The notes below the pieces were generated by a model. It was not told where the DNA came from. It saw nothing but the letters and a program-made list of their open reading frames with translations, and searched no databases. Below are positions 1-16,774 of a stretch of 17,443 nt of DNA, piece by piece (position 1 is the first letter of the stretch; every line of letters starts with the position of its first letter). The translations under genes were made by a program, and so were the position numbers. The DNA is taken from NCBI GenBank assembly GCA_900313545.1, contig OMRS01000055.1, forward strand, positions 1 through 17,443, given 5' to 3'. This stretch comes from an uncultured Eubacteriales bacterium. Lineage in GTDB: Bacteria; Bacillota_A; Clostridia; Christensenellales; Aristaeellaceae.

Positions 1-1803
1 AATCGCTTCAAGCAGTGGATCATCCAGGGAGCGGCCGTTCTGGCCGTTCTGACCGGAGCCGTGTGCTACGGATACGGTTATGCCGTGTGCCACGGGATGC
101 GACTGTCCTCCCTCGTGCGCGCCCTCCTGGCCATGTGCCGCATGTTTGCGGGGGTCAATGACCTGCAGAGCATTGCATCGGCCCCGCTCATGGCCCGTCC
201 CTGGATGCAGACGCTGTTCTGGGCCGGACATTTCATGGCCTTTTACGTCACCGCCAGCGCCGCCATCGCGACCCTGGGCGAGCAGCTGCTGCGCCAGATT
301 CGGGTGACGCTGCTCAGAAGGGGGACGCTGCTGCTCATCTACGGCATCAACGCCCGGTCCGTGGCCTATGGACGGCGCCTTGCCCGGGACAGGGACCACG
401 CCGTGGTCTTTGTGGATCAGGAGGACGGCGGGGCCTTTGAGGAGAGCATCCGCGCCTTCGGGGCCGTGGCGGACAGGGGCCCGGAGGCCATCCGGGGCAG
501 CCGGCGCTTTTTGAGGCGCCTCAACATGGAGCCCGGGAGCCGGAAGATGGAGGTGGCTGCCCTGCACATGGATGGAAGGCGGAATCTGGCCTATGCCCGT
601 GACCTGCTGGAATCCATGACGGCGGAGGGCATCAGGCCCTCCCAGATCCGCCTTGTGGCCGCGGGCACCGGCGATGAGGTGGCGGCGCTCCAGTCCATGG
701 GCGGCAAGGGCTACGGCAGCGTGTACGCCTTTGATGACTATACGCTGACCGCCCGCCTGATGCTTCGGGACCATCCGCCCTGCAACCTGATCTCCTTTGA
801 TGAAAACGGACGGGCGCGGGAAGACCTGCATGTGGTGATCCTGGGCTTTGGCTGCATGGGCCGGGCACTGCTGTCCCAGCTGGTTGTCAACGGCCAGTTC
901 TGCGGCAGCGCCTTCCGGGCGGACATCTTTGACCCCGCAGCCCAGGCGGGCTTTTTGTACGGGCACCCCATGATGCGGACCTACGATATCCGTTTCCACA
1001 ATGTGAGCGGGGCGTCTGAGGAGTTTTACAGGTTTCTGGACAAATACAGGGGAAGCATCCGGCTGATCTGCCTGTGCACCGGCACCCAGGAAAAGAACCG
1101 GGAAATGGCGGGGGACATCACCCGCTGGTATCACTGGGGCGAAATGCCGCCCCTCATCCTGCACGCCACCCGGGAGCGCTATTTCTGGATCGATGAATCG
1201 CGAAGGGAAATGCGCTCCCCCCACTTCTTTGACCGGGACGGCCTGGACCTGGAGGAAATGGACGCCATGGCCATGCAGGTCAACCACGTCTACTGTCAGG
1301 AGATGGGGTCCGTCGATGATGCCAGCAGCGAATGGGAACGCTGCGACTATGCCAGCCGCCAGGCCAGCCGCGCCAGCGCGGACTTCTATCCGGCCATGCT
1401 GCGCGCCGCCGGCAGGACGGCTTCGCAGGTGCTTTCGGGCCAGTGGCCGCCGCAGGGCGCCATGCTGGAGAACCTGTCCGTCACCGAGCACCTGAGATGG
1501 TGCGCCTGTCAGGTGGTGGAGGGGTATTCCCCCATGCCCCGGGAGGTGTGGGAGGAGCGCGCCGCGCGCTACAGGGAGCAGCTCTCCCGCGGGGAGAAGC
1601 CGTCCCTGCGCATCGGGAAGGATCCCGAAAGGCGCCTGCAGGCGTGCCTGATCCCCTGGGAGGACCTGGATGAGCTGTCCCGCCGGGAAAACGAGGTGAC
1701 CGGCGGGCATGTGGATTACCGGCAGATGGACCGCAACAACGTGATCATGCTCTCCCGGGTCCTCATGGCCCGGAAGGGCAGGGAGAAGCCAGCAGATGAG
1801 TGA
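1..1803 (+). CDS. Membrane protein with two TrkA-N/RCK-like Rossmann domains and a C-terminal RyR-like domain (5' end outside window)
   Basis: The frame is open from base 1, so the start lies upstream; 600 codons are visible. Numbering by visible codon, two hydrophobic segments (about 6-29 and 70-92) form a two-span membrane unit. A first Rossmann-like domain begins near codon 110 (LLIYGINARS, a G-x-N-x-x-S turn followed by VVFVDQED), and a second near 276 (VVILGFGCMG, a G-x-G-x-x-G turn). The C-terminus (about 489-590) has the pattern of a prokaryotic RyR repeat: ENLSVTEHLRW with His497 and Trp500, then LIPWEDLDE near 550. This layout recalls RCK-gated potassium channels, but the loop between the two spans has no TxGYG-like filter, so ion conduction is unproven. 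The stop overlaps the TIR gene start by 8 bp, implying co-translation. Alternative: a non-channel NAD-sensing membrane regulator. Domain calls are by eye; Rossmann folds are good, RyR moderate. Confidence 0.72.
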   Translation, partial: NRFKQWIIQGAAVLAVLTGAVCYGYGYAVCHGMRLSSLVRALLAMCRMFAGVNDLQSIASAPLMARPWMQTLFWAGHFMAFYVTASAAIATLGEQLLRQIRVTLLRRGTLLLIYGINARSVAYGRRLARDRDHAVVFVDQEDGGAFEESIRAFGAVADRGPEAIRGSRRFLRRLNMEPGSRKMEVAALHMDGRRNLAYARDLLESMTAEGIRPSQIRLVAAGTGDEVAALQSMGGKGYGSVYAFDDYTLTARLMLRDHPPCNLISFDENGRAREDLHVVILGFGCMGRALLSQLVVNGQFCGSAFRADIFDPAAQAGFLYGHPMMRTYDIRFHNVSGASEEFYRFLDKYRGSIRLICLCTGTQEKNREMAGDITRWYHWGEMPPLILHATRERYFWIDESRREMRSPHFFDRDGLDLEEMDAMAMQVNHVYCQEMGSVDDASSEWERCDYASRQASRASADFYPAMLRAAGRTASQVLSGQWPPQGAMLENLSVTEHLRWCACQVVEGYSPMPREVWEERAARYREQLSRGEKPSLRIGKDPERRLQACLIPWEDLDELSRRENEVTGGHVDYRQMDRNNVIMLSRVLMARKGREKPADE

Positions 1804-3244
1804 GTTTGTCTACGATGCGTTTATCAGCTACAGCCACCGGGACATGGCCTGGGCAAAATGGCTGCAGCACCGGCTGGAGACCTTCCATGTCCCCCGGGAG
1901 ATTGCGGGGGAGAGGATGGGCAGACGGCGCCTGAGGGTGTTCAGGGACCAGACGGACCTGGCCGGCGCGGAGCTGCAGGCGTCCCTCAACCGGGAGCTGG
2001 AAAAATCCCGGTTCCTGGTGGTGATCTGCTCCCCTGCAAGCGCGGCGTCCCGGTGGGTGGACGAGGAGATCCGCACCTTCCGCCGCCTCGGGCGCAGGGA
2101 CCGGATCATCCCCTTCATCGTCTCCGGCGAGCCCATGAGCGATCAGCCGGAGCTGGAGTGCTTTCCTCCCTGTCTGCGTACCGGGGAAGAGGAGGATGAC
2201 CCCCTGGGGGTCAACATCCAGGAGATCGGGCGCGGCAAGGCGTTGCTCAAGCTGGTCTCCGTGCTGCTGGAGGTGCGCTTCAACCGCCTGGTGGACCGGG
2301 AAAAACAGCGCCGGCGGCGTACGCTGCTGGTGATCTGCGCCCTGTGCACGGTGACCCTCGCGGTGACCGGCACCCTTCTGGCCAGCAACATCTCCATCTC
2401 CCGCAGCAACCGCAGGATGAAGTTTGACATCTACGGCGCTGCTCTGGTGGCCCTGGCCCGAAAGGAGTCCATGGAGCAGGAGGAGGTGGAGTTCCTGGAG
2501 GATTCGGCGGAGGAGGGAAACGTTGAGGCCATCCTGATGCTGGCGGACTGCTACCTGCGGGGCTGGGGCGTCGGGGTGGACCCCGAAAAGGCGTTCATGT
2601 GGTACGGACGGGCCGCGGAGGCGGGAAACCCCCAGGGAATGATCGGACTGGCCAACTGCTACCTCTCCGGAGTGGGGACGCAGGAGGATCCGGAGAAGGT
2701 CTTTGAATGGAACCTGAAGGCCGCCCGGGCCGGAGATCCCGCGGGCATGGTGAACGTGGCCGCCTGTTATGAGGACGGCTACGGCACTGCGCCAGGCGGC
2801 CGGGACGCCCTGCGCTGGTACCAGAAGGCGGCCAGGCGGCGGTATGATCTGGGTATGTTTCACCTGGCGAGATGCTGTACCCAGGGCATCGGCATGCCCC
2901 CCAACAACTATGCCGCCTTCCTGTGGATGCGGGAGCTGGCCCGGGACGGGAACCTGGATGCCATGTACAACGTGGGCCTCATGTACCAGTACGGATACGG
3001 CACGGGGGAGGATCCCCGGGAGGCCTACGGGTGGTACAGAAAGGCGGCGGACGCGGGATCCCCGGAGGCCATGCGCATGACGGGGTGGTGCGTCGAGCAC
3101 GGCTACGGCATTGACAGTGTCCCCCTGGAGTGGTACCTGCGCGCCGCGCAGGCCGGGGATGCCGAGGCCCTGGGCGAGGTGGAGCGTCTCATGGGGACGG
3201 CCACGGCGCAGGAGGCCGCGCGCGCAATTGAGGAAACCCCGTGA
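1796..3244 (+). CDS. TIR domain - single transmembrane helix - Sel1-repeat protein
   Basis: This 482-residue protein starts with a TIR domain (about 4-150): YDAFISYSHRD as box 1, the RDQTDLAGAEL loop as box 2, then VVICSPASAASRWVDEEI. Aligning the last motif to S-x2-YA-x-S-x-W-x3-E of NAD-cleaving TIRs puts the catalytic glutamate at Glu91, so NADase activity is plausible. A basic stretch (REKQRRRR, about 168-175) precedes one hydrophobic helix (176-198). The rest, about 225-475, is six to seven Sel1-like repeats (A-x-x-W-Y-x-x-A-A-x-x-G, A-x-x-x-L-x-x-x-Y-x-x-G-x-G), which usually bind other proteins. The positive-inside rule places TIR in the cytoplasm and Sel1 outside. The ATG at 1796 overlaps the upstream RyR/TrkA-like gene by 8 bp, with a GGGAG-type site about 10 bases upstream, so the two are probably translated together. 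Role in defence or signalling is inference. Confidence 0.85.
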   Translation: MSEFVYDAFISYSHRDMAWAKWLQHRLETFHVPREIAGERMGRRRLRVFRDQTDLAGAELQASLNRELEKSRFLVVICSPASAASRWVDEEIRTFRRLGRRDRIIPFIVSGEPMSDQPELECFPPCLRTGEEEDDPLGVNIQEIGRGKALLKLVSVLLEVRFNRLVDREKQRRRRTLLVICALCTVTLAVTGTLLASNISISRSNRRMKFDIYGAALVALARKESMEQEEVEFLEDSAEEGNVEAILMLADCYLRGWGVGVDPEKAFMWYGRAAEAGNPQGMIGLANCYLSGVGTQEDPEKVFEWNLKAARAGDPAGMVNVAACYEDGYGTAPGGRDALRWYQKAARRRYDLGMFHLARCCTQGIGMPPNNYAAFLWMRELARDGNLDAMYNVGLMYQYGYGTGEDPREAYGWYRKAADAGSPEAMRMTGWCVEHGYGIDSVPLEWYLRAAQAGDAEALGEVERLMGTATAQEAARAIEETP

Positions 3245-13667: not shown

Positions 13668-13870
13668 GTGCTGAGGGGCATGTGATTATTGTAACATAAT
13701 GACAACTCCGGACTGTGGAACAGGGAATGCCTGAAACCGAAGGTCACGGCAGGAGGATAGATGCCCGGCACACAGACAGAGAGGCTTGGCAGGCGAACAC
13801 AGGCGGTCGCGTCCATGTACGGTTCTGAGCAGAAGTCAGGGAGCCGGTGTCAGGGGAGGCGTACTGTCCG
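13668..13870 (+). ncRNA. Structured non-coding RNA or leader, possibly HEARO/omega-RNA-like
   Basis: A long untranslated stretch between a strong promoter and the zinc-ribbon gene folds readily by hand. A stem CTGTGG/TCACGG (13713-13718 with 13744-13749, one or two G-U) encloses CAGG-GAATG-CCTG (13721-13733) and ACC-GAA-GGT (13736-13744). GGCA/TGCC (13748-13751 with 13762-13765) is an alternative partner. A longer hairpin CGGTT-CTGA-loop-TCAG-GG-AGCCG spans 13820-13846. The segments GGCTTGGCAGGCGAACAC (13783-13800) and AGAAGTCAGG (13831-13840), and an ATGA at 13699-13702 just before the folded part, resemble my memory of HEARO RNAs, the omega-RNAs of IscB. That family call is recall, not a computed match. 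Alternatives: a 5' fragment of a group II intron, or a regulatory leader. Confidence 0.5.
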
Positions 13871-13880
13871 GAGGTGCAAG

Positions 13881-14273
13881 ATGAATAAGCTGGATCTGAT
13901 CGGGAAAAGGTTTGGAAAACTGACAGTGGTCTCCCTTGCCGAGGGAACGAAGAACGGCTATCTCTGCTGGCTGTGCAAATGTGACTGTGGAAATGAGAAG
14001 ATCGTCACAAGCCAGGCGCTGAGAATCGGGCATACGAAATCCTGCGGATGTCTGAAGGAAGGCAGAATTGAAGTCCTCGGAATGAAATTTGGAAAACTGA
14101 GCGTACTGGAACAGATCCCGACCGGGGAGGGAGAGGACAAGCTCTACCGCTGCAGGTGCGAATGCGGAAGAGAAGTGTTTGCCAGACGAAAGGAACTTCT
14201 GCTGTTCAGCAAGAGAAGCTGCGGATGTGCCAGACGGGTCAAAAAGACTCCGGCGGTTGAAACCAGATCCTGA
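13881..14273 (+). CDS. Small protein with two zinc-ribbon-like (C-x-C-x-C-G ... S-C-G-C) repeats
   Basis: A 130-residue protein built from two copies of one unit. Copy 1 (about 6-58): IGKRFGKLTVV, then Cys29, Cys32, Cys34, Cys36-Gly, then SCGC at 54-57. Copy 2 (about 65-117): LGMKFGKLSVL, then Cys91, Cys93, Cys95-Gly, then SCGC at 113-116. This unit is common in phage and mobile-element proteins of Firmicutes, sometimes next to HNH or AP2 endonuclease domains, and probably binds zinc and nucleic acid. No nuclease domain is present here. The tail is basic. ATG 13881 has GGAGG 6 bases upstream and starts at the repeat; ATG 13761, with AGGAGG 4 bases upstream, would add 40 Arg-rich residues but overlaps the folded RNA. 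Base use is less G+C-rich than in the neighbours, suggesting transfer. Confidence 0.8.
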   Translation: MNKLDLIGKRFGKLTVVSLAEGTKNGYLCWLCKCDCGNEKIVTSQALRIGHTKSCGCLKEGRIEVLGMKFGKLSVLEQIPTGEGEDKLYRCRCECGREVFARRKELLLFSKRSCGCARRVKKTPAVETRS

Positions 14274-16210: not shown

Positions 16211-16774
16211 ATGGCAAAAGACACGGCATTCAAACCCAAGAAAAGCTCCGCAAGGATGATTCGCATCCTTTTGACCGCGATTTTCATTGTGAAAGTGGTG
16301 GCCACCATCCTGGGAACCATCGTCACCCTGGTTTCCGCCTCCAGCGTGACAAAGACCCTTGTGACAACGGCAAATGACTCGATGGGCGATCTTCAGCAGG
16401 CGGCTTCGCCGGAACTGATGAACAATCTGCAGGCGATCGCGGGGATCGTTCAAGGCCTGGGCTCGGCACTGATTCCCGTGGGGATCCTTGCCGCCCTGAT
16501 CCTCATCTTCAAGTTTTATGTGGACTACTGCTACAAGATGATGGAAGTGGAGCGCACGGAGGATGTGCGGGTGCTCCGCAACCTGATGGTGGCAAAAGAA
16601 GCCGGCATCGGGAACGATACGACCCAGCTGATTGAATTCATGGACAGCAAGGCTGACAGCATCACCAGTCGTTCCTCCAGGGAGAAGAAAGCGATCTACG
16701 AAGAGATCCGCGCGGTTCATACGCTGCTTGAAAATCAGGGCGGAACCCCCAATTCTCCCTATGCAAGACGCTGA
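16211..16774 (+). CDS. Membrane protein of unknown function, two transmembrane helices
   Basis: I do not recognise this 187-residue family. A basic N-terminus (KDTAFKPKKSSAR) is followed by a first helix (about 17-42), a short polar loop with DSMGDLQQAASPELMNNL, and a second helix (about 82-105). The C-terminal 80 residues are charged and helical, with KMMEVERTEDVRVLRNLMVAKEAG and a SREKKAIYEEIRAVHTLLE coil-like end. By the positive-inside rule both termini are cytoplasmic, with a loop of about 40 residues outside. The ATG at 16211 has AAAGGAG 7 bases upstream. It is a single-gene unit with its own promoter and a hairpin after it. A scaffold or partner-binding role would fit but is guesswork. 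Confidence 0.8.
   Translation: MAKDTAFKPKKSSARMIRILLTAIFIVKVVATILGTIVTLVSASSVTKTLVTTANDSMGDLQQAASPELMNNLQAIAGIVQGLGSALIPVGILAALILIFKFYVDYCYKMMEVERTEDVRVLRNLMVAKEAGIGNDTTQLIEFMDSKADSITSRSSREKKAIYEEIRAVHTLLENQGGTPNSPYARR

What the first reader, a model, noticed from the sequence alone, without database searches (positions are those of the whole stretch)
1..3244. Two-gene module: RyR/TrkA-like membrane protein overlapping a TIR-TM-Sel1 protein
Seen: an 8-bp gene overlap joins a membrane protein with two Rossmann domains and an RyR-like C-terminus to a TIR protein that keeps the NADase glutamate (Glu91). Known: TIR enzymes cut NAD to ADP-ribose or cyclic ADP-ribose variants, and RCK/TrkA-N domains gate membrane channels by binding nucleotides. 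Inference: the TIR product, or loss of NAD, could be sensed by the RyR/Rossmann protein and change membrane permeability, giving an abortive-infection or stress-signalling pair. It is notable that cyclic ADP-ribose has long been linked with ryanodine receptors in animals. The 5' part of the locus is outside the window and may hold further components.
Basis: partly seen in the sequence, partly recalled or inferred. Interest (0 to 1): 0.75.

Follow-up and report, generated by a model that had tools for sequence, protein, structure and literature searches.

The report
TIR sensor with ryanodine-like channel partner
A gut-type bacterium carries, as overlapping genes, a membrane-anchored TIR protein of the kind that makes immune signals from NAD and a membrane protein whose tail resembles the signal-binding part of animal ryanodine receptors; in many relatives a potassium channel with the same tail sits beside them, which suggests that the signal gates a channel.

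Summary
Gene 1 (window 1-1803, 5' end cut) has a membrane part, two RCK/TrkA-type Rossmann domains and a diverged RyR (Repeat12-type) tail; gene 2 (1796-3244) is TIR-TM-Sel1 with the NADase glutamate; they overlap by 8 bp. The pair is not the whole module: 62 of 80 relatives carry a third gene (X), a 2TM K+ channel with a GYGD filter, Rossmann domains and an RyR domain. In L001-type relatives X lies directly upstream, so it is probably just outside this window. TIR genes lie in 46 of 80 loci, with several kinds of sensor region; 50 of 52 of these TIR proteins have a membrane segment soon after the TIR domain. X keeps the four RyR residues that bind cyclic ADP-ribose in phage RyDEP, at identical spacing. 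In an independent sample, 8 of 9 other genomes with an RyR gene have a TIR or DUF4062 gene within 2 kb. Best reading: a Thoeris-like pathway in which a membrane TIR receptor makes an NAD-derived nucleotide that gates an RyR-RCK channel. Nothing was tested biochemically, the trigger is unknown, and no defence island was found.

The parts
1..1803 (+). P1: membrane + RCK1 + RCK2 + diverged RyR protein, 5' end outside the window (about 25 residues missing compared with P0001)
   Evidence: ORF; full-length copy; fold; domains
1..315 (+). P1 membrane region (P0001 residues 26-130): helix, pore-helix-like segment ending in G-x-N-D (X has G-Y-G-D), long helix
322..1245 (+). two Rossmann/RCK domains (P0001 about 133-440); the second keeps GxGxxG, invariant in 40 of 40
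1456..1785 (+). diverged RyR/Repeat12-like domain (P0001 about 511-620): His 1489-1491, Trp 1498-1500, Gln (His in 31 of 40 family members aligned) 1639-1641, Asp 1729-1731
   Evidence: sequence
1796..1803 (+). 8-bp overlap of the two genes
   Evidence: the same 8-bp overlap in L001, L006, L007, L013, L017
1796..3244 (+). TIR-TM-Sel1 protein
1796..2194 (+). TIR domain; catalytic-type Glu91 at 2066-2068
2324..2380 (+). hydrophobic (membrane) segment, aa 177-195
2504..3115 (+). Sel1 repeats (approximate limits)
   Evidence: similar sensor regions in 15 of 52 TIR proteins of the relatives

Best explanation
The locus is part of a TIR-to-channel signalling cassette. A membrane receptor carries a repeat domain (here Sel1), probably outside the cell membrane, and a cytosolic TIR NADase. 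When triggered it makes an NAD-derived nucleotide, most likely a cyclic ADP-ribose isomer. The RyR domains of the K+ channel X and of its companion P1 bind this nucleotide and, through the tandem RCK gating ring, open (or close) the channel, changing K+ flux and membrane potential and arresting the cell or resetting its stress state. Shown here: domain content, operon structure, the recurrent linkage, conservation of the RyR ligand residues and of the TIR glutamate, a membrane segment after the TIR domain. Inferred: catalysis, ligand identity, direction of gating, a P1-X heteromer, presence of X upstream of this window, the outward side of the sensor, trigger and outcome.
For: X in 62 of 80 loci, within 150 bp of P1 in 61; TIR in 46 of 80, within 300 bp of the P1-X core in 39, of these 37 on the same strand. 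X: GYGD in 34 of 34; RyR residues His, Trp, His in 34 of 34 and Asp in 33 of 34, at spacing 0/3/25/42 as RyDEP H75/W78/H100/D117 (numbers). P1 and X are homologous over RCK-RCK and into the RyR tail, hhalign E 5e-30. TIR Glu in 49 of 54 unique TIR sequences. 50 of 52 cassette TIR proteins have a membrane segment after the TIR, against 7 of 35 control TIR proteins. Genomes of L001, L004, L024 and L052 hold one TIR_2 match each, and a TIR gene lies beside the cassette in each. P1-like hits go with a TIR gene in 20 of 21 genomes against 93 of 227 others (p 7e-7; the sample's centre G001 is one of the 21). Independent RyR genes: 8 of 9 genomes have TIR or DUF4062 within 2 kb. Precedents: GsuK, a dual-RCK K+ channel activated by ADP and NAD+ (PMC3510474, abstract); RyR domains binding 2'/3'cADPR (PMC13232231).
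Against: 34 of 80 loci show no TIR; 14 of these have at least 3 kb on both sides (one of them, L041, looks like a TIR cut by the contig end). 26 of 27 such genomes have a TIR_2 gene somewhere, but TIR genes are common anyway (113 of 248). X is missing in 18 of 80 loci, L011, L018 and L019 among them. Four control TIR proteins (L141, L142, L148, L150) closely resemble the cassette TIRs, with membrane segment, yet no P1 or X was found in the 3.9-7.5 kb fetched around them. Of 120 listed X homologs, 88 carry a precomputed RyR domain and 32 do not. The window's P1 has Gln for one ligand His. The membrane part of P1 has no significant match to a known pore. No biochemistry. The flanks are not a defence island.
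Confidence: 0.55

Rival explanations
1. NAD-level sensor: the TIR depletes NAD and the RCK domains, not the RyR domains, sense the change (loss of NAD or rise of ADP/ADP-ribose), gating the channel.
For: GsuK, the kind of dual-RCK channel that P1 resembles, is activated by NAD+ and ADP (abstract, one section); the second Rossmann of P1 keeps GxGxxG in 40 of 40.
Against: Does not explain why RyR, rare in the sampled phylum (10 of 398 genomes), sits beside or near TIR genes even as a stand-alone 93-103 aa protein (L093, L111, L112). The first Rossmann of the one X sequence inspected (L001) lacks a clear GxGxxG.
Confidence: 0.17
2. Off-switch: the RyR domains hydrolyse the TIR signal, as RyDEP does, so P1/X end the response or protect the cell from leaky TIR activity.
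For: The RyDEP catalytic pair (H75, D117) is kept in X (34 and 33 of 34) and P1 (40 and 40 of 40).
Against: In the RyDEP preprint six of eight tested homologs bound the signals and none of the eight degraded them; an enzyme does not need a K+ pore and a gating ring.
Confidence: 0.1
3. Envelope or osmotic stress signalling: same molecules, but the trigger is an envelope, peptide or turgor cue and the channel adjusts K+, with no role in phage defence.
For: The TIR side of the membrane segment is the more positive one in 44 of 50 TIR proteins (counted from the listing), which by the positive-inside rule (recalled) puts the sensor region outside; window neighbours are dapF and MATE and the named Pfam families of the flank proteins look metabolic or regulatory (first 25 of 57 families seen); K+ channels serve osmoregulation (general knowledge).
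Against: Patchy distribution (6 strong hits in 248 genomes), different neighbours in most of 14 close relatives and swapped sensor regions look like conflict systems.
Confidence: 0.35
4. Unrelated neighbours: P1/X are K+ uptake or efflux subunits and the TIR linkage is incidental.
For: 34 of 80 loci have no TIR in the fetched stretch; cassette-like TIRs occur without P1/X nearby.
Against: Recurrence with several TIR types, up and down stream, often overlapping; 8 of 9 independent RyR genomes.
Confidence: 0.04

Closest known systems
Thoeris anti-phage systems, in particular the TM-macro ThsA variant (PMC11204291, passages seen)
   Same: TIR protein makes an NAD-derived nucleotide; the partner is a membrane protein with a nucleotide-binding domain; adjacent genes
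   Different: Candidate sensor domain is RyR, not SLOG or macro; candidate effector is a K+ channel with RCK gating ring; the TIR is itself membrane-anchored with a repeat region; no defence test
RyDEP, phage RyR-domain proteins (PMC13232231; sections 2, 4, 5, 22, 27 read)
   Same: RyR (PF02026) domain with the same four ligand residues at the same spacing in X
   Different: RyDEP is a phage anti-defence protein; here the domain is on a bacterial channel near a TIR gene
GsuK and other dual-RCK K+ channels, and CASTOR/DMI1 gating rings
   Same: 2TM pore with GYGD (X) and two RCK-type domains; among the best structural matches of P1
   Different: Extra C-terminal RyR domain; P1 has no K+ filter; linked to TIR genes
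Animal ryanodine receptors (Repeat12 domain)
   Same: Homologous domain: the X profile hits an RyR1 chimera at 3.8e-21; on an ion channel in both
   Different: Different pore and no RCK ring (general knowledge); Ca2+ store channel rather than K+ channel

Membership tests
TIR NADase | TIR fold with catalytic Glu in WxxxE | tested here: met
   TIR_2 1e-16; Glu91, Glu in 49 of 54 unique TIR sequences
TIR NADase | cleaves or cyclises NAD | not testable with these tools
   needs enzyme assay
RyR (PF02026) domain protein | Pfam hit above curated cut-off, window P1 | tested here: not met
   none for P1; 8 of 40 family members weak, best 0.0036
RyR (PF02026) domain protein | Pfam hit above curated cut-off, partner X of relatives | tested here: met
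   4 of 4 X proteins scanned, 33-37 bits against 27.4; but precomputed RyR in 88 of 120 listed X homologs
RyR (PF02026) domain protein | ligand residues His/Trp/His/Asp | tested here: met
   X 34/34, 34/34, 34/34, 33/34; P1 family 40/40, 40/40, 31/40, 40/40 with a longer insert; the window itself has 3 of the 4 (Gln for the second His)
RCK/TrkA gating-ring protein | two Rossmann RCK domains after a membrane region | tested here: met
   for P1; TrkA_N + RyR in one protein in the distant relative L113
K+ channel | TM-P-TM with TVGYGD filter | tested here: met
   for X of relatives only; X itself lies outside the window
K+ channel | TM-P-TM pore fold in P1 | tested here: inconclusive
Thoeris | ThsA effector with SIR2-SLOG or TM-macro | tested here: not met
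   no such domain in P1 or in the 4 X proteins scanned
Thoeris | anti-phage activity | not testable with these tools
   needs phage challenge
defence-island resident | known defence genes nearby | tested here: not met
   2 PADLOC families, one protein each, among 69 flank proteins of 14 loci at E<=1e-8

The most novel reading that the evidence does not exclude
Bacteria have a complete receptor to second-messenger to channel axis built from the parts that animals use for cyclic ADP-ribose and ryanodine receptors: a membrane TIR receptor with an outside sensor makes a cyclic ADP-ribose isomer that directly opens an RyR-domain K+ channel (a P1/X heteromer). RyR domains would then be the host-side receptors of TIR signals in general, and the phage RyR proteins (RyDEP) stolen copies of them.
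Probability: 0.35. Interest if true: 0.93.

Novelty: new variant of a known kind. Interest (0 to 1): 0.82.

Why it matters
Whether cyclic ADP-ribose acts directly on ryanodine receptors is an old dispute in animal physiology (general knowledge). A small bacterial RyR channel genetically tied to a TIR enzyme would let that be tested with purified parts. It also names a candidate host receptor class for TIR-made signals that phage RyDEP proteins destroy or sequester, and a candidate effector type, a gated K+ channel, for TIR signalling.

Tried and rejected
Own-genome search: no genome is held for the window, so the DNA upstream of base 1 could not be read here.

Direct profile searches of the window P1 in Pfam, NCBIfam, PADLOC and PDB sequences gave nothing useful; family-level and structure comparisons were needed. 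The weak Pfam names DUF7555 and F420_oxidored were not followed: both are below the curated cut-offs.

P1 as a proven pore: rejected as a claim. Profile comparison of the membrane parts of P1 and X failed (prob 4%) and the fold search of that part alone had no E<=0.001; the pore-loop rows (48 of 50 shown) are suggestive only. The animal RyR fold is not in the listed structural rows, which barely test the tail; that absence is not evidence. The tail was not folded on its own.

Phage or plasmid carriage: tblastn of P0001 gave no match in 50,697 phage records and one in 72,556 plasmid records. Defence island: not found.

Literature: ten searches of the open library (one search was rejected for a bad term and not counted). 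'Thoeris' with 'potassium channel' gave 0 papers, 'RyR domain' with 'TIR domain' and 'TrkA' 0, 'SMODS' with 'ryanodine' 0. By title or abstract the RyDEP preprint was the only bacterial or phage paper in the listings that treats RyR and TIR signals together; reviews of SARM1 and NAD also hold both words (listing) and were not read. Two further papers were searched for RyR terms: PMC8195603, only two reference-list mentions of ryanodine, and PMC9503650, none. The 2015 survey of nucleotide-centred conflict systems by Burroughs and colleagues (recalled) did not turn up in the searches and may already mention bacterial RyR domains near TIR genes.

Limits of the counts: the TIR profile was seeded partly with TIR genes noticed, which raised 43 to 46 of 80 loci. 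The 80 loci are the best of 147. The 20 of 21 figure includes weak P1-like hits (E up to 1e-3), includes the centre G001, and is not corrected for genome size or kinship; with the 6 strong hits alone it is 6 of 6 against 107 of 242, p 0.008. The 40 control TIR regions were picked by hand from the listing, 20 from its top and 20 lower, all in genomes without a P1 hit; 35 gave a TIR ORF with my profile, some of them weak. L048, one of the two cassette TIRs without a membrane segment, is cut by its contig end, and L038 has two segments. G579 and G663 carry very similar modules, so 8 of 9 is nearer to 7 independent cases.
Full report
What is in the window. Two ORFs on the + strand overlap by 8 bp: 1-1803 (5' open, 600 aa) and 1796-3244 (482 aa). 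A near-identical 625-aa copy of the first, P0001, begins about 25 residues earlier, so the gene start lies outside the window. The second is TIR (TIR_2 1e-16), a hydrophobic segment (aa 177-195) and Sel1 repeats. Glu91 lies four residues after Trp87, the place of the TIR catalytic glutamate (motif recalled); it is Glu in 49 of 54 unique TIR sequences of this set. Downstream follow dapF and a MATE transporter.

The third gene. One scan of species genomes gave 147 relatives; the best 80 loci were kept. In 62 of 80, a homologous gene X lies in the stretch, within 150 bp of P1 in 61, often with a 4-bp overlap. X is about 516 aa: Ion_trans_2 3e-15 and RyR 1.2e-8, above the curated cut-offs, in L001; GYGD in 34 of 34 aligned; profile hits to K+ channels and to the RyR1 repeat domain (3.8e-21). 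Of 120 listed X homologs, 88 carry a precomputed RyR domain. P1 and X align from the first RCK into the RyR tail, E 5e-30, so they are paralogs. In the closest relatives, L001-type, the order is X-P1-TIR; the window starts inside P1, so X is expected just upstream. This is inference.

The RyR site. A 2026 preprint (PMC13232231; outline and sections 2, 4, 5, 22 and 27 read) reports phage RyR-domain proteins binding or cleaving 2'/3'cADPR, with H75, W78, H100 and D117 as contacts. In X these correspond to H456, W459, H481 and D498 (L001 numbering): identical spacing, conserved in 34, 34, 34 and 33 of 34. P1 has a longer insert before the second His. In that preprint six of eight tested homologs bound and none of the eight degraded the signals, so conservation of the His/Asp pair does not decide between receptor and enzyme.

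The TIR partners. With a profile built from these loci, TIR ORFs occur in 46 of 80 stretches; in 39 one lies within 300 bp of the P1-X core, in 37 on the same strand. Of 45 loci with at least 3 kb on both sides, 31 have one. The sensor regions differ: of 52 TIR proteins, 15 are Sel1-like as in the window, and BLAST groups most of the others into six further groups of three to nine; those scanned are beta-propeller (WD40/PQQ), TPR and RHS types, with FtsK and MORN types in distant loci. Of the 52, 50 have a hydrophobic segment soon after the TIR domain; in 44 of the 50 the TIR side is the more positive one (counted from the listing), which suggests TIR inside and sensor region outside. Among 35 control TIR proteins from genomes without a P1 hit, 7 have such a segment; four of these closely resemble the cassette TIRs and show no P1 or X in the stretch fetched, so this TIR type can occur without the channel nearby. 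Six loci (L033, L034, L036, L040, L049, L077) carry a doublet whose short TIR has Arg in place of the Glu (L034 identical to L033).

Is the linkage more than chance? The genomes of L001, L004, L024 and L052 have one TIR_2 match each and a TIR gene beside the cassette. Of 27 genomes whose locus shows no TIR, 26 have one somewhere, but so do 113 of 248 genomes of the order. In that sample P1-like hits (21 genomes, 6 of them strong full-length, the centre G001 included) coincide with TIR in 20, against 93 of 227 others, p 7e-7. An independent sample asked only for PF02026: 10 of 398 genomes of the phylum have it. Leaving out G001, 8 of 9 have a TIR or DUF4062 gene within 2 kb of an RyR gene: RyR alone near TIR (L111, L112), TrkA_N-RyR beside DUF4062-TPR (L113), RyR near DUF4062 (L114), an RyR protein near TIR-NPHP3_N (L115), an RyR protein overlapping a TIR gene by 4 bp (L116, with leucine-rich repeats, and L117), and AAA-RyR, TIR and an X-like RyR protein together (L118). 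L119 has none within its 15-kb stretch, though its genome has four TIR_2 matches. DUF4062 is reported as a TIR-like NADase (PMC13174449, passages seen).

What it most likely does. A TIR receptor in the membrane makes an NAD-derived nucleotide; RyR domains on X and P1 sense it and the RCK ring gates the K+ pore. GsuK shows that a dual-RCK channel can be nucleotide-gated, by ADP and NAD+ (PMC3510474, abstract, one section), which also makes the NAD-level rival serious. The trigger is open. Among 14 close relatives most flanking genes differ; shared neighbours were seen for L002-L008, for L007, L011 and L017, for L008-L020, and an EAL gene for L004 and the window. The cassette is patchy and its sensors are swapped, as in conflict systems; but PADLOC finds no defence island (2 families in 69 flank proteins), and the sensor regions probably face outward, which also fits envelope stress.

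Membership. It works like Thoeris (TIR, nucleotide, membrane effector) as a hypothesis but is not filed as Thoeris: no SIR2-SLOG or macro effector was found, and anti-phage activity is untested. Novelty: a new variant of TIR-nucleotide signalling with an RyR-RCK channel as candidate effector. The ten library searches (listed under Tried and rejected) found no description of it; most subscription papers are not covered.

Noticed in passing
L093:6784-10788 and L094:5829-10918: Distant P1-like protein beside a stand-alone RyR gene (103 and 92 aa; PF02026 6e-35 for the first, the second not scanned) and a TIR-FtsK or TIR-MORN gene.
   Followed up: partly
L033, L034, L036, L040, L049, L077: TIR doublets: a short TIR of about 280 aa with Arg in place of the catalytic Glu, next to an intact TIR (TPR type in L033), with an 843-899 aa ORF before the doublet; in L034 and L077 that ORF starts like a secreted protein.
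   Followed up: partly
L113:5486-9130 and L115:6841-13411: RyR membrane-protein gene beside a 595-600 aa gene with an N-terminal VGVTGHR motif (SLOG-like by recall; no Pfam family above cut-off) and near a DUF4062 or TIR-NPHP3_N gene.
   Followed up: no
L097:6065-10644 (Butyrivibrio fibrisolvens D1 plasmid pNP243): P1 homolog WP_073389489.1 directly downstream of TIR protein WP_167562754.1 in a named strain; the next annotated gene is an EAL-domain protein, not X.
   Followed up: partly
L140:2163-7001: A control TIR locus turned out to carry an RCK-RyR-like ORF (cut by the stretch end) about 1.5 kb away.
   Followed up: no
window 13761-14273 and 16211-16774: Two ORFs (170 and 187 aa) without a Pfam match above cut-off; the first has repeated SCGC/CDCG cysteine motifs.
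   Followed up: no
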